Positions 29,346-41,227 of a stretch of 64,000 nt of DNA are shown in pieces; position 1 is the first letter of the stretch, and each line of letters begins with the position of its first letter. The stretch comes from Mesoterricola silvestris (GTDB lineage Bacteria; Acidobacteriota; Holophagae; Holophagales; Holophagaceae), in NCBI RefSeq assembly GCF_030295405.1, contig NZ_AP027080.1, positions 4,448,001 to 4,512,000 of the forward strand, read 5' to 3'. The position numbers were made by a program, and so were the translations under genes. The notes under the pieces were generated by a model. It did not search any database and was not told where the DNA came from. It worked only from the letters and a program-made list of their open reading frames with translations.

Positions 29346-29350
29346 GCGCG

Positions 29351-29757
29351 CGTGTCCCGGAATTTCGCCCCGGGTCGTGGCTGCGGGCACGGCCCGCAGC
29401 CACGGAAGGATCTCCACCCGGGGATCGGGCTGTGTTTCACCCATTGGCCCCGACCCACGCCGGGGCCTCGCTTCGTGTGGTTCGGGGTGGACCTGGGGAC
29501 GCGCCGACACTGATCGGTGAAGCGATGGCGATCAGCGTCGGCGCCTGCCGGCGTCGGTCTCGCTCACGCGGAGCGAATCCATGCCGCATTGGAAGCCGCG
29601 CGCCAAGCCCGGGGCCTCCCGGAGGGCGCTTCCCTCCCGGACACCCCCCCGCTCAACGAAGCCAATAGGCGTAGCCTAGCCCCATCGTCCCTTCCTCACC
29701 CCCCGTCATCGCCGGCTTGTCCGGTGATGACGACCCGGGGCGCAGGTCCGGAACCCG
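29351..29757. repeat. Type-2 inverted-repeat element, copy 1
   Basis: A ~405-bp non-coding element filling the 417-bp spacer between the convergent dacB and MglA-fusion genes. Terminal inverted repeats: 29354-29377 against 29731-29754 (sharing CGCCCCGGGTCG). Just inside are hairpin 1 (29376-29388/29392-29404, a perfect 13-bp stem) and hairpin 2 (29704-29715/29721-29732). The interior carries TCACCCATTGGCCCCGACCCA and GGCGTAGC, shared with the copy at 40417 in the opposite orientation. No gene is seen in it. Confidence 0.8.
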
Positions 29758-29762
29758 GACGC

Positions 29763-35117: not shown

Positions 35118-36238
35118 AGCGTCTGCTGTACACGGCCCCCGCCCTCCTCCTGGTCTCCTTCATCCCCGGCGCGGGCTTCTGGGGACCGGTGGTGCTCCTG
35201 GTGGGCCTGATCTTCTTCCATGAACTGGGCCATTTCCTGGTGGCCAAGTGGATGGGCCTGCCCGTGGAGGTCTTCTCCCTGGGCTTCGGCCCCCGGGTGG
35301 CCGGCTTCGCCTGGCAGGAGACGGACGTTCGCCTGTCCCTGCTTCCGCTCGGCGGTTACGTTCGTTTGGCGGGCTACAACCCCGAGGATCCGGACGCCGA
35401 GGACCCCCACGGCTTCCTGGCCCAGCCCGCCTGGAAGCGCATGGCCTTCTATTCCGGCGGCATCCTGGCCAACGTCCTCATCACCGTCGTGATCTTCTTC
35501 TTCCTGGGCATCAACAACGCCCGCACCACCGCCGCCCATCCCCAGCCCTCCCCCCTCCTGGTGGTGGAAGTGAACGCCGGCATGCCCGGCGCCCAGGGCG
35601 GCCTCAAGCCGGGCGACCAGATCACCCGCTTCGGGGATCTGAAATTCCCCGGAAACAGCAACGAGGAGGCCATCACCTACATCCGGGCCCGCTCCGGCCA
35701 GCCCATCCCGGTGGCCCTGGACCGGGAAGGCACGAGCCGCACCCTCACCATCACCCCCGCGGAGGTGGGCGGGGCCGGAAAGATCGGCGTGGCCTTCGAG
35801 CCCTCCAGCTGGACCTTCGACCGGCGGCCCATGCGGGCCGGGGATCTCCTCCTGGGCGCGACCTTCGCGGTGAAGGGCAGCGCGCTCCTCGGCTGGGAGA
35901 TCCTGGGGAATTTCGGCAAGCTGGTGAGCCGCCAGGTCAGCCTCAAGGAAGTGGGCGGCCCCATCACCATCGTGCGGGCCGGAAGCCGTGCGGCCAAGGC
36001 CGGCCTCCTCCAGTTCATGGGCCTCGTCGCCCTGATCTCCATGAACCTCGCCGTGCTCAACGCCCTGCCCATCCCCTTCCTGGACGGCGGCCACGCGGCC
36101 CTGCTGCTCATCGAGAAGATCCGGGGGAAGGACCTGTCGAACCTGGTGAAGGAGCGCATCCTCACCGGCGGGTTCCTGTTCTTCGTGGGGCTGTTCGCGC
36201 TGATCATCTTCCAGGACCTCTGGAAGCTCCGGCACTGA
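35114..36238 (+). CDS. rseP: Site-2 protease RseP
   Basis: 374 residues. HELGH (zinc site, in the first transmembrane part), a single PDZ domain (about 145-230) and the later NALPIPFLDGGH with the third zinc ligand Asp. About four transmembrane helices. It cuts membrane-bound regulators in the envelope-stress response. The E. coli protein has two PDZ domains; one here is common outside Gammaproteobacteria. The gene's last 150 bp are repeated downstream (37261-37341 and 38363-38466). Confidence 0.95.
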   Translation: MKRLLYTAPALLLVSFIPGAGFWGPVVLLVGLIFFHELGHFLVAKWMGLPVEVFSLGFGPRVAGFAWQETDVRLSLLPLGGYVRLAGYNPEDPDAEDPHGFLAQPAWKRMAFYSGGILANVLITVVIFFFLGINNARTTAAHPQPSPLLVVEVNAGMPGAQGGLKPGDQITRFGDLKFPGNSNEEAITYIRARSGQPIPVALDREGTSRTLTITPAEVGGAGKIGVAFEPSSWTFDRRPMRAGDLLLGATFAVKGSALLGWEILGNFGKLVSRQVSLKEVGGPITIVRAGSRAAKAGLLQFMGLVALISMNLAVLNALPIPFLDGGHAALLLIEKIRGKDLSNLVKERILTGGFLFFVGLFALIIFQDLWKLRH

Positions 36239-36307
36239 CCCCATGAGCCCTTCCGTGGCCAACGCCCGGGAATGCCCCTAGGCTTTCCCCGGGAGGGCCC
36301 CGGTCCC

Positions 36308-37240
36308 ATGAGCGTCGCCAATCCGATCTACGATGTCGTCTTCAAGTTCCTCCTGGATGACGAGCGGATCGCGCGGATGCTGCTTTCCGCGCTCCTGGGG
36401 CGGGAGGTGGTGGAGCTCTCCTTCGTGCCCACGGAGACCCGGGAGCCGGTGGCGCGCCCCGATGGCACCAGCCTCCTGGTCCTGCGCATGGACTTCGCCG
36501 CGAAGGTGCTCATGGAGGACGGCAGCCGCAAGCTGGTGCTCATCGAGATCCAGAAGGCCCGCGACACCTCCGACATCCAGCGGTTCCGGAGGTACCTGGG
36601 AACCAGCTACGCCGATCCGCGGAATTCCTACCGGGACGCCCAGGGCGTGGAGCTGCCCCTGCCCATCCTCACCATCTACTTCCTGGGCGAGGGCCTGAAG
36701 GGCCTCGATCTTCCGGTGCTGAGGGTCGACCGGCGCTGCTGGGACCCGGCCACGGGCGACGAGGTCCGCATCGCAGATCCCTTCGTGGAGGCCCTGACCC
36801 ACGATTCGGTCATCATCCAGATGAACCGCCTCAAGGACCGCCGCCGGACCGATCTGGAGCGGCTCCTGGAGGTCTTCGACCAGGGCGTCGCCTCCCACAC
36901 CGACCCCCACTTCCTGGACATCCTGGAGGTGAACTTCCCGGAGCGCTACCGGGACGTGCTTCGCAGGCTCAAGCTGGCCTACTCCGAACCCGGCCTCCGG
37001 GTGAAGATGGACCTGGAGGACGAGATCCTCCACGCCTTCCAGGAACGCGCGAGGGAGGCCGCGGATCTGCGGATTGGCCTGTCGAGCCGGGACCGGGTGA
37101 TCAGCGACCAGGGCAAGGCCCTTGCGGACAAGGACCGGGTGATCGAGGACAAGGACCGGCTGATCGAGGACAAGAACCGGTTGCTCGAGGACAAGGACCG
37201 CACCATCGTCGAACTGCTGCGCCGCCTGGACGCCACCTGA
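36308..37240 (+). CDS. Rpn-family PD-(D/E)XK nuclease, copy 1
   Basis: 310 residues. It belongs to the PDDEXK_2 (Rpn, recombination-promoting nuclease/putative transposase) family. It starts MSVANPIYDVVFKFLLDDE. The catalytic pattern is Asp62, then Glu80-Ile-Gln82-Lys83 (EIQK). The C-terminal tail has four 7-residue units of the type DKDRVIE, probably a coiled coil. Apart from the tail and its last residues it matches copy 3 at every position. Copy 2 differs at two residues. Rpn proteins are tied to DNA uptake and phage defence in E. coli; the role here is inference. Confidence 0.88.
   Translation: MSVANPIYDVVFKFLLDDERIARMLLSALLGREVVELSFVPTETREPVARPDGTSLLVLRMDFAAKVLMEDGSRKLVLIEIQKARDTSDIQRFRRYLGTSYADPRNSYRDAQGVELPLPILTIYFLGEGLKGLDLPVLRVDRRCWDPATGDEVRIADPFVEALTHDSVIIQMNRLKDRRRTDLERLLEVFDQGVASHTDPHFLDILEVNFPERYRDVLRRLKLAYSEPGLRVKMDLEDEILHAFQERAREAADLRIGLSSRDRVISDQGKALADKDRVIEDKDRLIEDKNRLLEDKDRTIVELLRRLDAT
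37127..37210 (+). repeat. 21-bp tandem repeats coding the Rpn copy 1 tail
   Basis: Four in-frame 21-bp units (GACAAGGACCGGGTGATCGA type). The same region has three units in copy 2 (39313-39375) and six in copy 3 (40238-40363). The unit number changes the protein length in steps of 7 residues (310, 303, 324). Confidence 0.9.
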
Positions 37241-37260
37241 AGGACGGCCACACCAGGGGA

Positions 37261-37341
37261 GGAGGCCACGCGGCCCGGCTGCTCTTCGAAAAGATCCGAG
37301 GGAAGGACCTGTCGAACCTGGTGAAGGAGCGCATCCTCACC
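37261..37341 (+). pseudogene. Duplicated rseP fragment, part 1
   Basis: 81 bp matching rseP 36086-36166 with five mismatches that I counted. It lies 20 bp after Rpn copy 1. It breaks off in the middle of the CTCACC/GGCGGG sequence, where a 1021-bp insertion (37342-38362) begins; the match resumes at 38363. Confidence 0.9.
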
Positions 37342-37930
37342 AGAACGCAAGCATGGCGTTGTAGCCGGAGTGGCAGGCCACGCACAGCAGGAGGGACCGG
37401 GTTCGCACGCCGAGGATGCCCAGGGCGATGCCCGCGGAGAATGCGTGGGGCATGAAGCCGGGTTGCCGGTGGTCCAGGGCGAAGGCCGCCGCAGAACCCA
37501 GGATGCCCAGGACTGGGCCATGGCGCCTGGAAGCGACCCGGCAGAAGAGGCCCCGGTAGAGGAGCTCCTCCACGTAGGGCACGATTCCCACCACCTCCAG
37601 GGCGATGGAAGGCGGCACGGGCCCGGGGGCTGGCGGGGCCAGCAGGAGGCGGAGAACCTTGACTCCCGTCAGGAACCCCCAGGGGAGGAGCGCCAGGGGC
37701 CACTCCCAGGGGCGGAAACGTTCCACCGGATGGTACCGGCTGCAGAAGGCGAGGAGGAAGGCCGTCGCCAGGAACGTCGCGGCCAGCGTGGGGCCGCAAG
37801 GCAGCAGCCAAACCCCACCTTCCCCCTCCCAGGCCGCAATGCTTCCCACCCACGCCTTGACGGCCACCATCGCCAGGATATCGCGGAGGCGGACCGCAGG
37901 GAGGTCCCGGGACCAGGGACCCTCCGTCAA
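37337..37930 (-). CDS. CPBP-family intramembrane metalloprotease
   Basis: About 197 residues, several transmembrane helices. The CPBP (Abi) motifs are in order: EELLYRG (EExxxR), FALDH and HSGYN (HxxxN). The stop codon (TGA at 37339-37337) falls inside the rseP fragment at the insertion border, so the C-terminus may be cut short by the insertion junction. The start is probably TTG at 37930, overlapping the stop of the next upstream gene in a TTGA; an ATG at 37870 is the other option. These enzymes cleave membrane substrates, often prenyl or bacteriocin related. Confidence 0.8.
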   Translation of the reverse strand: MTEGPWSRDLPAVRLRDILAMVAVKAWVGSIAAWEGEGGVWLLPCGPTLAATFLATAFLLAFCSRYHPVERFRPWEWPLALLPWGFLTGVKVLRLLLAPPAPGPVPPSIALEVVGIVPYVEELLYRGLFCRVASRRHGPVLGILGSAAAFALDHRQPGFMPHAFSAGIALGILGVRTRSLLLCVACHSGYNAMLAFW

Positions 37931-38362
37931 TTAAGCCAGCGGTGGGTACGATCGGCCACGGGCCTAGATGACATGGGAATGGACTGCCCCATGGCCACCA
38001 ACTGGCCGACAGCCTTCGCGGCATTCAATCCAGCTCGCAGGGTTTCCGATGCGATTTCCGATTTGACGGTCTCCAGGATCGCTCTCCCCACGGGTCCCGT
38101 GGTCGTCCCCTGGGGGCCAGTCCACGCGCTGGAGGAAGATGGGATGTGGCCCGGAATGGCCGCTTGCTGGCGGTGCATCATGCCGCCGGTGATACAGGCA
38201 AGGACCCCATCCTCCAATTTGGGAGGAAGTTTGGATGGAAATGCATCATTGGGGTGGATCATGGGCGCACCTGTTGGAGTACCGAGAACCCTCGGATGGA
38301 GGATCACGTTAGGCCGCGAGGGGTGCCCGTCAATGGCTTTCACACCGGGCGATGGTTTGGCA
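37342..38362. mobile_element. 1021-bp insertion carrying the CPBP gene pair
   Basis: It interrupts the duplicated rseP fragment between 37341 and 38363, with the two flanks matching rseP 36166 and 36167 directly (no lost base, no obvious target duplication). It holds the CPBP protease gene, the small gene before it and about 100 bp with no gene. I see no transposase and no terminal repeats, so the mechanism is unclear. Confidence 0.65.
37927..38262 (-). CDS. Small hypothetical protein upstream of the CPBP gene
   Basis: 111 residues starting at an ATG with AGGTG 6 nt upstream. It ends in a 4-bp overlap (TTGA) with the CPBP start, which suggests the two are coupled. The middle is Pro/Thr/Gly-rich, and the C-terminal half has a helical AILETVKSEIASETLRAG stretch. 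No family is recognised. Support comes from the RBS and the overlap; the composition fits the rest of the 1-kb insertion. Confidence 0.45.
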   Translation of the reverse strand: MIHPNDAFPSKLPPKLEDGVLACITGGMMHRQQAAIPGHIPSSSSAWTGPQGTTTGPVGRAILETVKSEIASETLRAGLNAAKAVGQLVAMGQSIPMSSRPVADRTHRWLN

Positions 38363-38466
38363 GGCGGGTTCCTGGTCTTCGTATGGCTGTTCGCGCCGAT
38401 CATCTTCCAGAACCTCCAGAAGCACTCGATGAGCCGTTCCGTGGCCAACGCCCGGGAATGCCCCTA
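38363..38466 (+). pseudogene. Duplicated rseP fragment, part 2, with the pre-rpn leader
   Basis: It continues the rseP match (36167 onward), diverged, with the stop codon of rseP lost. It then runs in frame into the same short leader that precedes Rpn copy 1 (ATGAGCC...GTGGCCAACGCC..., coding SVANARECP). The leader before copies 1 and 2 is the same over about 60 bp. Confidence 0.85.
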
Positions 38467-38493
38467 GGCTTTCCCCGGGAGGGCCCCGGTCCC

Positions 38494-39405
38494 ATGAGCG
38501 TCGCCAATCCGATCTACGATGTCGTCTTCAAGTTCCTCCTGGATGACGAGCGGATCGCGCGGATGCTGCTTTCCGCGCTCCTGGGGCGGGAGGTGGTGGA
38601 GCTCTCCTTCGTCCCCACGGAGACCCGGGAGCCGGTGGCGCGCCGCGATGGCACCAGCCTCCTGGTCCTGCGCATGGACTTCGCCGCGAAGGTGCTCATG
38701 GAGGACGGCAGCCTCAAGCTGGTGCTCATCGAGATCCAGAAGGCCCGCGACACCTCCGACATCCAGCGGTTCCGGAGGTACCTGGGAACCAGCTACGCCG
38801 ATCCGCGGAATTCCTACCGGGACGCCCAGGGCGTGGAGCTGCCCCTGCCCATCCTCACCATCTACTTCCTGGGCGAGGGCCTGAAGGGCCTCGATCTTCC
38901 GGTGCTGAGGGTCGACCGGCGCTGCTGGGACCCGGCCACGGGCGACGAGGTCCGCATCGCCGATCCCTTCGTGGAGGCCCTGACCCACGATTCGGTCATC
39001 ATCCAGATGAACCGCCTCAAGGACCGCCGCCGGACCGATCTGGAGCGGCTCCTGGAGGTCTTCGACCAGGGCGTCGCCTCCCACACCGACCCCCACTTCC
39101 TGGACATCCTGGAGGTGAATTTCCCGGAGCGGTACCGGGACGTGCTTCGCAGGCTCAAGCTGGCCTACTCCGAACCCGGCCTCCGGGTGAAGATGGACCT
39201 GGAGGACGAGATCCTCCACGCCTTCCAGGAACGCGCGAGGGAGGCCGCGGATCTGCGAATCGGCCTGTCGAGCCGGGACCGGGTGATCAGCGACCAGGGC
39301 AAGGCCCTTGCGGAAAAGGACCGGGTGATCGAGGACAAGGACCGGCTGCTCGAGGACAAGGACCGCACCATCGTCGAACTGCTGCGCCGCCTTGAAACAA
39401 CGTGA
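38494..39405 (+). CDS. Rpn-family PD-(D/E)XK nuclease, copy 2
   Basis: 303 residues, same family and active-site residues as copy 1 (Asp62, Glu80, Gln82, Lys83). Outside the tail it differs from copies 1 and 3 only at residue 51 (Arg for Pro) and residue 74 (Leu for Arg); residue 74 is close to the active-site strand. The tail has three 7-residue units (the shortest). The gene is preceded by the duplicated rseP end and leader, so this copy arose from a duplication that included the end of rseP. Copy 3 starts 13 bp after its stop. Confidence 0.88.
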   Translation: MSVANPIYDVVFKFLLDDERIARMLLSALLGREVVELSFVPTETREPVARRDGTSLLVLRMDFAAKVLMEDGSLKLVLIEIQKARDTSDIQRFRRYLGTSYADPRNSYRDAQGVELPLPILTIYFLGEGLKGLDLPVLRVDRRCWDPATGDEVRIADPFVEALTHDSVIIQMNRLKDRRRTDLERLLEVFDQGVASHTDPHFLDILEVNFPERYRDVLRRLKLAYSEPGLRVKMDLEDEILHAFQERAREAADLRIGLSSRDRVISDQGKALAEKDRVIEDKDRLLEDKDRTIVELLRRLETT

Positions 39406-39418
39406 TGGAGGCCATCCC

Positions 39419-40393
39419 ATGAGCGTCGCCAATCCGATCTACGATGTCGTCTTCAAGTTCCTCCTGGATGACGAGCGGATCGCGCGGATGCTGCTTTCGG
39501 CGCTCCTGGGGCGGGAGGTGGTGGAACTCTCCTTCGTGCCCACGGAGACCCGGGAACCGGTGGCGCGCCCCGATGGCACCAGCCTCCTGGTCCTGCGCAT
39601 GGACTTCGCCGCGAAGGTGCTCATGGAGGACGGCAGCCGCAAGCTGGTGCTCATCGAGATCCAGAAGGCCCGCGACACCTCCGACATCCAGCGGTTCCGG
39701 AGGTACCTGGGAACCAGCTACGCCGATCCGCGGAATTCCTACCGGGACGCCCAGGGCGTGGAGCTGCCCCTGCCCATCCTCACCATCTACTTCCTGGGCG
39801 AGGGCCTGAAGGGCCTCGACCTTCCGGTGCTGAGGGTCGACCGGCGCTGCTGGGACCCGGCCACGGGCGACGAGGTCCGCATCGCAGATCCCTTCGTGGA
39901 GGCCCTGACCCACGATTCGGTCATCATCCAGATGAACCGCCTCAAGGACCGCCGCCGGACCGATCTGGAGCGGCTCCTGGAGGTCTTCGACCAGGGCGTC
40001 GCCTCCCACACCGACCCCCACTTCCTGGACATCCTGGAGGTGAATTTCCCGGAGCGGTACCGGGACGTGCTTCGCAGGCTCAAGCTGGCCTACTCCGAAC
40101 CCGGCCTCCGGGTGAAGATGGACCTGGAGGACGAGATCCTCCACGCCTTCCAGGAACGCGCGAGGGAGGCGGCGGATCTGCGGATTGGCCTGTCGAGCAG
40201 GGACCGGGTGATCAGCGACCAGGGCAAGGCCCTTGCGGACAAGGACCGGGTGATCGAGGACAAGGACCGGGTGATCGAGGGCAAAGACCGGCTGATCGAG
40301 GACAAGGACAAGGCCCTCGGGGACAAGGACCGGTTGCTCGAGGACAAGGACCGCACCATCGTCGAACTGCTGCGCCGCCTTGAAACGACGTGA
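39419..40393 (+). CDS. Rpn-family PD-(D/E)XK nuclease, copy 3
   Basis: 324 residues, the longest copy, with six 7-residue tail units (40238-40363) and otherwise the same protein as copy 1 up to the tail. Only 13 bp separate it from copy 2, so the two are probably one transcript. The rseP-derived leader found before copies 1 and 2 is missing, so this copy came from a second, shorter duplication. The type-2 element copy 2 begins 23 bp after its stop. Confidence 0.88.
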   Translation: MSVANPIYDVVFKFLLDDERIARMLLSALLGREVVELSFVPTETREPVARPDGTSLLVLRMDFAAKVLMEDGSRKLVLIEIQKARDTSDIQRFRRYLGTSYADPRNSYRDAQGVELPLPILTIYFLGEGLKGLDLPVLRVDRRCWDPATGDEVRIADPFVEALTHDSVIIQMNRLKDRRRTDLERLLEVFDQGVASHTDPHFLDILEVNFPERYRDVLRRLKLAYSEPGLRVKMDLEDEILHAFQERAREAADLRIGLSSRDRVISDQGKALADKDRVIEDKDRVIEGKDRLIEDKDKALGDKDRLLEDKDRTIVELLRRLETT

Positions 40394-40416
40394 TGGAAGG
40401 CCACTGGAGCCTGGCA

Positions 40417-40893
40417 ACGTAATCGTACGCGTCCCGGACTTTCGCCCTGTTTCGTCATCGCCGGCCAAGCCGGCGATGACGGGGGATGCGGAAGAGATGT
40501 TGGGGCTGTGCTACGCCCAACTCACTTCGTTGAGCAGAAGGGAATTCGGAAGGGAATGGCTCTCCTGGAAGGCCAAGACGAGGAGAGCGGCTCCCATGGG
40601 TTTGTGGGTTTGCTTCGCGATGGCCCTCTCGGTGCCGGTGGGCGCCGACGCTGTTTTGAAGTTGGCTCGAGCCCAGACCTGCTGAAGGGCTGGTTCGAGA
40701 CGAGGTCGCTTTTCCTAATGAGCGTTGGCGCGGTCCAATGCCCTCCTCGCAGCACTCGAAGAGAGGCCCTGAGGTGGGTCGGGGCCAATGGGTGAAAACA
40801 CAGGCCCAACCATGGGGTGAGAGCATTCCGTTGCTGCGGGCTTGGCCCTCAGCAACGAACCGGGGCGAAAGTCCGGGACACGTGCGATTACGT
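40417..40893. repeat. Type-2 inverted-repeat element, copy 2
   Basis: 477 bp in the 510-bp spacer between convergent Rpn copy 3 and the DUF2007 gene. The terminal inverted repeats are 38 bp (40417-40454 and 40856-40893) with only a few mismatches; both begin ACGTAATCG. Hairpins lie inside each end: 40453-40465/40469-40481 (a perfect 13-bp stem) and 40829-40841/40845-40857 (13 bp, one mismatch). It is homologous to the element at 29351, in reverse orientation. No convincing gene. Confidence 0.85.
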
Positions 40894-40903
40894 AGCCAGG
40901 CTC

Positions 40904-41227
40904 CTAGGCCTGGCGTTCCCCCTGGCATTTCCAGCAGGACTGGAACTGGGGTTCCAGGACTTCCCCGCATGCGGGGCAGGTCCAGGGTTCCCCTTCCGGG
41001 GCCTTGCGGAGGAGCTCGAGGTAGTCCTGGACGAAGGCCTTGGCCCGGGGGGCGTCGGCGTCGTCCAGCACCCAGACCTCGGGGAGGAGGCCGCGGATGT
41101 TGTAGAGCTCGCCCCGCACCGAATGGTGGGCGCCGCCCCGCACTTCGGCGGGGACGCCCTTCTCGCACAAGTACACGGCGATCAGATTCCCCTCCCGAAG
41201 GTTGATCGCTTCATGAACGGCCTTCAC
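40904..41227 (-). CDS. DUF2007-type protein with C-terminal zinc ribbon
   Basis: 107 residues starting with GTG behind GGAGG. Residues 1-70 resemble DUF2007 (putative signal-transducing domain; REGNLIAVYLCEKGVPAEVRGG). The C-terminal 25 residues form a zinc ribbon, CPACG and CWKC. The protein is small and cytosolic; function unknown. It lies 10 bp after smpB on the same strand, so it is likely cotranscribed. Confidence 0.75.
   Translation of the reverse strand: MKAVHEAINLREGNLIAVYLCEKGVPAEVRGGAHHSVRGELYNIRGLLPEVWVLDDADAPRAKAFVQDYLELLRKAPEGEPWTCPACGEVLEPQFQSCWKCQGERQA

What the first reader, a model, noticed from the sequence alone, without database searches (positions are those of the whole stretch)
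36308..40393. Three almost identical Rpn nucleases that differ in the number of 7-residue tail units
The three proteins (310, 303, 324 aa) are alike outside the tail: copies 1 and 3 match, and copy 2 has two changes (residues 51 and 74). The tails hold 4, 3 and 6 units of the DKDRVIE type, each coded by a 21-bp tandem repeat (37127, 39313, 40238). Slippage or recombination in the repeats changes length in frame, so the tail could tune partner choice or oligomer form while the nuclease core stays fixed. Rpn proteins in E. coli have been tied to phage defence with intragenic antitoxins. Tandem copies with variable tails would suit a defence locus under arms-race pressure.
Basis: partly seen in the sequence, partly recalled or inferred. 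Interest (0 to 1): 0.75.

Follow-up and report, generated by a model that had tools for sequence, protein, structure and literature searches.

The report
Triplicated Rpn-like nucleases with variable-length tails
A soil-type bacterium carries three back-to-back, nearly identical genes for a probable DNA-cutting enzyme whose main difference is how many 7-residue blocks extend a rod-like tail; the same pattern recurs in distant bacteria and an archaeon, so tail length looks like the part that evolution changes, as already seen in a different form in E. coli Rpn defence proteins.

Summary
Three intact genes (310, 303, 324 aa) have 99-100% identical cores and tails of 4, 3 and 6 heptads, each coded by 21 bp. 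The copies are real: they have distinct SNPs and flanks in a one-contig genome. They form a 4.7-kb island absent from sister genomes, built by two tandem duplications with different ends, and the cores look homogenised. The proteins are a divergent Rpn-like family. They have the RpnA catalytic set (D9, D62, E80, Q82, R92) in RpnA's order and spacing and a weak profile match, but score far below the TIGR01784 cut-off. The tail is predicted as one ~96-residue helix. The pattern is general: in 25 of 25 same-genome pairs with cores at least 96% identical, from four genomes including a Bacteroidota bin and an archaeon, tails differ by a non-zero multiple of 7 residues. Tail-repeat variation and tandem arrays are already published for Rpn proteins, but with 4-residue repeats; the heptad, register-keeping tail is the new variant. 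Partner tuning is plausible by analogy. Phage defence and an intragenic antitoxin are not shown here: housekeeping neighbours, no PADLOC hit, no Shine-Dalgarno at the internal start.

The parts
36242..40920 (.). 4.7-kb island between rseP and the next gene; in sister genomes G004 and G005 the same site has only about 10-50 bp
   Evidence: blastn of the window against five genus genomes: alignment stops at 36240-36242 and resumes at 40921 in G004 and G005
36308..37240 (+). Rpn-like nuclease gene, copy 1 (310 aa)
   Evidence: ORF and alignment; catalytic D9, D62, E80, Q82, R92 present
37127..37210 (+). tail repeats of copy 1: 4 x 21 bp (DKDRVIE DKDRLIE DKNRLLE DKDRTIV)
   Evidence: Tandem Repeats Finder, sequence
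37007..37009 (+). conserved Met234 near the start of the tail helix, copy 1 (candidate internal start; no Shine-Dalgarno)
   Evidence: 30 of 31 family members have M; no SD
37261..37341 (+). duplicated 3' end of rseP, first half (94% to 36086-36166)
   Evidence: the repeat finder, polarised alignment
37342..38362 (.). 1,021-bp insert splitting the duplicated rseP end; carries a CPBP/Rce1-like protease ORF (37337-37930, - strand)
   Evidence: PF02517, E 1.9e-15
38363..38423 (+). duplicated 3' end of rseP, second half
38494..39405 (+). Rpn-like nuclease gene, copy 2 (303 aa; P51R, R74L, D274E)
39313..39375 (+). tail repeats of copy 2: 3 x 21 bp; the second unit is a hybrid of two unit types found separately in the neighbouring copies
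39193..39195 (+). Met234 codon, copy 2
39419..40393 (+). Rpn-like nuclease gene, copy 3 (324 aa), 13 bp after copy 2
40238..40363 (+). tail repeats of copy 3: 6 x 21 bp; the first two units are identical
40118..40120 (+). Met234 codon, copy 3

Best explanation
The locus is a tandem array of one divergent Rpn-like PD-(D/E)XK nuclease gene. SHOWN: an rpn gene lies in an island downstream of rseP that sister genomes lack. A unit of rseP 3' end plus rpn (1,175 bp without the later insert) was duplicated, and an rpn-only 925-bp unit was duplicated as well. The cores stayed nearly identical (pattern best explained by gene conversion plus purifying selection). The tails change length only in whole 21-bp units, so both reading frame and heptad register are kept. 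INFERRED from structure prediction and from E. coli Rpn: the tail is a rod-like helix that pairs with other tails (coiled coil), and its length decides which tails pair well, hence which nuclease subunits assemble or inhibit each other. The nuclease core would be the effector (DNA cleavage), kept in check by tail-mediated assembly. Anti-phage function is a reasonable but unproven guess.
For: Core fixed, tail free: every complete genus member has Met234 (or its equivalent) at exactly the same position, while tails are 48-91 aa. In 25 of 25 same-genome pairs with core identity at least 96% (window array, G001 array, Bacteroidota bin G064, archaeal bin G070), tails differ by a non-zero multiple of 7. 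Pure heptad signal: lag-7 identity 0.404 against 0.116 shuffled, lag-4 0.077, over 52 tails, with aliphatics at unit positions 5-6 and a conserved C-terminal cap. Unit-level slippage: G001 copies 1 and 3 differ by one exact 21-bp unit; window copy 2 has a hybrid unit. Empty sites. Two duplications with different ends. Homogenisation: rseP remnant 15/148 changed against 4/176 synonymous sites in the core (Fisher p 0.0035; 0.0004 with the spacer added); in the G001 array all three possible splits of four copies occur among core sites. dN/dS at most 0.17 in the window array. Catalytic set intact and spaced as in RpnA (D11, D63, E82, Q84, R94; PMC5350276). HHalign to a canonical Rpn set E 2e-4, 200 colinear columns, score 23 against 1-7 for shuffled controls. 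Tail predicted as one helix, residues 228-323, pLDDT mostly 74-89. Function by analogy: one added repeat switches RpnC recognition (PMC10327210).
Against: No direct evidence of oligomerisation, cleavage or defence. 'All tail lengths different' could be chance: P 0.025 when units are drawn from the pooled distribution for all close pairs, but only 0.26 for the two complete genomes, and short-read bins collapse identical copies. Fold searches are inconclusive: best Z about 5 to unrelated domains, with PD-(D/E)XK enzymes such as EndoMS (Z 4.3), MspJI and McrC only among weak hits. The heptad has one aliphatic patch per 7 residues and a mostly charged surface, so a single stable helix is possible instead of a coiled coil.
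Confidence: 0.55

Rival explanations
1. Tail length is neutral: the 21-bp repeats slip often, any whole-heptad change is tolerated because the rod keeps its register, and the number of units has no function.
For: Repeats are near-perfect at DNA level, so slippage is expected; tail lengths in the two complete genomes are compatible with random draws (P 0.26).
Against: The heptad pattern and C-terminal cap are kept across Acidobacteriota, Bacteroidota, Planctomycetota and Desulfobacterota, so the tail itself is selected; in E. coli RpnC one extra repeat changes recognition (PMC10327210).
Confidence: 0.3
2. Intragenic toxin-antitoxin as in E. coli: Met234 is an internal start that yields the tail helix alone (RpnS-like), which inhibits the full-length nuclease, and tail length sets cognate specificity.
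For: Met234 is kept in 30 of 31 relatives close to where the tail helix begins; 7 of 18 genus members have an 8-base Shine-Dalgarno match (AGGAGGTG or AAAGGAGG) 9-11 nt upstream.
Against: None of the three window copies has an SD there. In relatives the SD is largely what the encoded Gln/Lys-Glu-Val codons give anyway (synonymous resampling P 0.08). No domain like the three-helix RpnS bundle follows.
Confidence: 0.25
3. The array is the product of self-mobilisation (putative transposase) rather than of selection on the host.
For: Island absent from sisters; patchy distribution; weak PHROG 'transposase' match; MITE-like element and a transposase remnant near the arrays.
Against: Duplicated units have different ends and one includes host rseP sequence, i.e. 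tandem duplication, as reported for Rpn arrays (PMC10327210); no inverted ends or target-site duplications seen.
Confidence: 0.07
4. Assembly artefact: one gene wrongly repeated.
For: Near identity of the copies.
Against: Distinct SNPs, tails, flanks and a 1-kb insert separate the copies; an independent array exists in another one-contig genome.
Confidence: 0.02

Closest known systems
Rpn (YhgA-like, COG5464/PF04754/TIGR01784) toxin-antitoxin nucleases of E. coli, C. difficile and others (PMC10327210; PMC5350276)
   Same: D-D-E-x-Q-R catalytic set in the same order and near-identical spacing; variable repeats in the C-terminal part with a fixed N-terminal nuclease; tandem arrays made by direct duplication; patchy distribution.
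   Different: 7-residue repeats that keep helix register rather than 4-residue repeats; tail ends in a short cap instead of the three-helix RpnS domain; score far below the family cut-offs; internal start lacks an SD here.
H. pylori alpha-1,3-fucosyltransferases and beta-1,4-galactosyltransferase with heptad repeats (described in PMC3858298)
   Same: Variable number of heptads (DDLRVNY, DELTGKY); repeat lengths in homo- and heterodimers are said to determine how many sugar units are modified.
   Different: Unrelated enzymes (sugar transfer on LPS); there the variation is between strains, here it is documented between paralogues.
NeuO poly-psi domain of E. coli K1 (PMC3046976)
   Same: Heptad number changes by slipped-strand repeats and tunes activity in steps.
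   Different: N-terminal, assumed unfolded, with heptanucleotide repeats that also switch the gene on and off; unrelated fold.
EcoR124I/II repeats (cited in PMC10327210)
   Same: Repeat number in a defence nuclease system changes a spacing and thereby specificity.
   Different: 4-residue TAEL repeats that set the DNA gap recognised.

Membership tests
Rpn / TIGR01784 (COG5464) nucleases | Score above the curated family cut-off (Pfam or NCBIfam) | tested here: not met
   TIGR01784 17.4 bits against cut-off 52.1; Pfam no hit even at E 10
Rpn / TIGR01784 (COG5464) nucleases | Catalytic residues as in RpnA (D11, D63, E82, Q84, R94) | tested here: met
   D9, D62, E80, Q82, R92 in all three copies and in 30-31 of 31 relatives; spacings 53/18/2/10 against 52/19/2/10 in RpnA
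Rpn / TIGR01784 (COG5464) nucleases | Core homologous over its length to canonical Rpn | tested here: met
   HHalign E 2.2e-4, 200 colinear columns with IEIQ aligned on IEIQ; score 23 against 1-7 for column-shuffled controls; probability only 20%, so distant
Rpn / TIGR01784 (COG5464) nucleases | PD-(D/E)XK fold by structure comparison | tested here: inconclusive
   Model pLDDT 85-87; no match above Z 5.1; EndoMS, MspJI and McrC only among weak rows
Rpn intragenic toxin-antitoxin (RpnL/RpnS) | Internal start with ribosome-binding site before the C-terminal domain | tested here: inconclusive
   Met234 conserved 30/31, but no SD in the three copies; SD in relatives largely explained by codon choice
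Rpn intragenic toxin-antitoxin (RpnL/RpnS) | 4-residue repeats varying in the first helix of RpnS | tested here: not met
   Lag-4 identity 0.077 (below shuffled 0.115), lag-7 0.404: repeats are heptads
Anti-phage defence system | Similarity to known defence proteins or location in a defence island | tested here: not met
   No PADLOC hit; neighbours dxr, rseP, smpB, dedA (names by inspection); only one other rpn locus lies near an HsdR_N protein
Rpn intragenic toxin-antitoxin (RpnL/RpnS) | Growth inhibition by full-length protein relieved by the C-terminal fragment | not testable with these tools
   needs expression experiment

The most novel reading that the evidence does not exclude
Tail length is a private recognition code: near-identical nucleases in one cell each carry a different number of heptads so that each pairs only with itself, insulating several copies of one toxin-like enzyme by coiled-coil length alone, in bacteria of several phyla and in an archaeon.
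Probability: 0.25. Interest if true: 0.78.

Novelty: new variant of a known kind. Interest (0 to 1): 0.55.

Why it matters
If the tail is a length code, duplicated toxic nucleases can be kept from cross-reacting, or made to cross-react, by adding or removing 21 bp, without touching the enzyme. Here nature supplies matched sets (3, 4 and 6 heptads on one core; four more on another core) that make the idea directly testable. It also extends Rpn repeat variation to a divergent family that curated models miss and that occurs in Acidobacteriota, Bacteroidota, Planctomycetota, Desulfobacterota and an archaeal bin, with heptads in place of 4-residue repeats. A 4-residue unit rotates a helix, whereas the heptad keeps its face, so the two variants separate 'length' from 'register' as the thing recognised.

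Tried and rejected
Assembly artefact: rejected (distinct SNPs, flanks, insert). Phage- or plasmid-borne family: no match in the phage and plasmid collections, one partial hit in viral contigs. Known defence system: no PADLOC hit. Solved structures by sequence: nothing useful. Structure searches with the full model and the core-only model gave no clear match in PDB or BFVD; this is not evidence that the fold is new. Internal-start Shine-Dalgarno: strong in 7 of 18 genus members, but codon choice largely explains it and it is absent in the window copies. 'All lengths differ' as proof of insulation: not significant in complete genomes, so kept only as the novel case.
Full report
OBSERVATION. Cores are identical in copies 1 and 3; copy 2 has P51R and R74L, plus D274E at the first tail unit. 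Tails hold 4, 3 and 6 heptads coded by 21-bp repeats, far from chance (0 of 10,000 codon shuffles in each copy). The genome is one 4.99-Mb contig with two further, divergent copies elsewhere. The nearest relative comes from a genome whose record is titled Holophagaceae bacterium UBA692 (a contig of the same length, 6,591 bp, carries the same match in G005, a genome of the window's genus), so the host is most likely a Holophagaceae bacterium. Among 60 relatives the gene is found only in this genus.

WHAT THE PROTEIN IS. Pfam, NCBIfam and PADLOC give nothing above threshold; TIGR01784 (Rpn) matches at 17.4 bits against a cut-off of 52.1. Three lines place it as a divergent Rpn relative. First, RpnA of E. 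coli needs D11, D63, E82 and Q84 (R94 was also examined; PMC5350276); this family has D9, D62, E80, Q82 and R92 in the same order with spacings 53/18/2/10 against 52/19/2/10, in all three copies and 30-31 of 31 relatives. Second, profile-profile alignment to canonical Rpn proteins of a class relative is colinear over 200 columns, E 2e-4, score 23 against 1-7 for shuffled controls. Third, the predicted secondary structure puts D62 and E80/Q82 on successive strands, followed by a helix carrying R92, as expected for PD-(D/E)XK. Structure searches were inconclusive. So it is best called Rpn-like: homologous, with intact catalytic residues, but outside the curated family models.

THE TAIL. AlphaFold gives one continuous helix, residues 228-323. 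Over 52 tails from several phyla, lag-7 identity is 0.404 against 0.116 for shuffles, lag-14 0.377, while lag-4 is 0.077. The unit is charged except for an aliphatic pair at positions 5-6, and most tails end in a cap of the type I-x-E-L-x-R/K-x-L. In the genus, every complete protein has Met234 at exactly the same position (no net length change in the core) but tails of 48-91 residues.

HOW THE LENGTHS CHANGE. In sister species G001 an unrelated array (cores 68-69% identical to the window's) holds four tandem copies of 307, 286, 314 and 300 aa: all differ by multiples of 7. Two of them differ in the tail by one exact 21-bp unit, and window copy 2 carries a hybrid of two unit types that are separate in its neighbours. 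Across genomes, 25 of 25 same-genome pairs with cores at least 96% identical differ by a non-zero multiple of 7, and none are equal. They come from G000, G001, a Bacteroidota bin with ten full copies (G064) and one pair in a bin labelled Methanomicrobiales (G070). Caution: short-read bins collapse identical copies, and if units are drawn from the pooled distribution the 'no ties' result has P 0.025 overall but 0.26 for the two complete genomes. The multiples-of-7 result is solid; the 'every copy different' result is only suggestive.

HOW THE ARRAY AROSE. In G004 and G005 rseP is followed after 10-50 bp by the sequence that in the window begins at 40921, so 36242-40920 is an insertion peculiar to this genome. 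Inside it, the 3' end of rseP occurs a second time (37261-37341 and 38363-38423, split by a 1,021-bp insert with a CPBP/Rce1-like protease ORF). One duplication was therefore rseP-end plus rpn (spacing 1,175 bp without the insert). Copy 3 repeats only the rpn gene (spacing 925 bp from copy 2). Different ends and no terminal repeats mean tandem duplication, as Zhong et al. describe for other Rpn arrays (PMC10327210). The rseP remnant has 15 differences in 148 bp (most of them on the remnant's branch), yet the rpn cores show 4 synonymous differences in about 176 sites and the 57-bp spacer none (Fisher p 0.0035 and 0.0004). Simple divergence since duplication does not explain that; gene conversion of the copies does. 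In the G001 array, core sites support all three possible groupings of the four copies, again a sign of exchange. Amino-acid change in the cores is rare (dN/dS 0-0.17 in the window array).

FUNCTION. Shown in E. coli by others: Rpn nucleases are toxic, are blocked by their own C-terminal fragment, and one added 4-residue repeat changes which partner is recognised; one plasmid-borne member protects against some T-even phages (PMC10327210). By analogy, the most likely role of this tail is assembly and regulation, with length as the selector. Adding 7 residues keeps the helix face, unlike adding 4, so here length alone would change. This step is inference. The specific RpnS mechanism is unproven here: Met234 is conserved (30 of 31) near the start of the tail helix, but the window copies have no Shine-Dalgarno there, and the strong ones in relatives largely follow from the encoded residues (resampling P 0.08). 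Defence is likewise unproven: no PADLOC hit, housekeeping neighbours, no phage or plasmid relatives beyond one partial viral-contig hit.

COMPARISON AND VERDICT. Closest known are the Rpn proteins; precedents for heptad number as a tuner are H. pylori fucosyltransferases (described in PMC3858298) and NeuO (PMC3046976). The finding is real, general and well explained at the DNA level. As a phenomenon it is a new variant (heptad, register-keeping) of a published one (4-residue repeat variation in Rpn). The insulating length code is the novel reading that the evidence does not exclude.

Noticed in passing
40406-40904; also about 29347-29761 in the window: A ~500-bp element with 69-nt terminal inverted repeats (83%) forms the right end of the island. 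About 11 near-full copies at 84-90% or better and more than 20 weaker or partial ones occur across the genome (74 match rows); MITE-like; whether it has been described was not checked.
   Followed up: partly
37342-38362: 1,021-bp insert with a CPBP/Rce1-like membrane protease ORF (37337-37930, - strand; PF02517 E 1.9e-15) inserted cleanly into the duplicated rseP end; no target-site duplication seen.
   Followed up: partly
L095:13522-13700: In G001 the coding 3' end of the fourth rpn copy is 87% complementary to the tRNA-Arg(CCT) gene just downstream, so the protein's last residues may derive from tRNA sequence.
   Followed up: no
residue 74 of the arrays (window copy 2; L095 copies 3 and 4): Residue 74, just before the catalytic E80/Q82, differs within both independent arrays (R74L; R74Q), although the cores are otherwise almost fixed.
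   Followed up: no
L096:10431-11507: One of the other rpn loci of this genome lies about 1.5 kb from an HsdR_N-type restriction protein gene (PF04313).
   Followed up: no
L154:1462-2490: A canonical Rpn from the class relative G048 has a long tail of repeated 7/14-residue type (RADAEKRKAEVERQ), so heptad-like tails may occur in canonical Rpn too.
   Followed up: no
contigs of genomes G060-G076: Many metagenome-bin contigs begin or end inside genes of this family, as expected if near-identical multicopy genes break short-read assemblies; copy numbers are probably underestimated.
   Followed up: no
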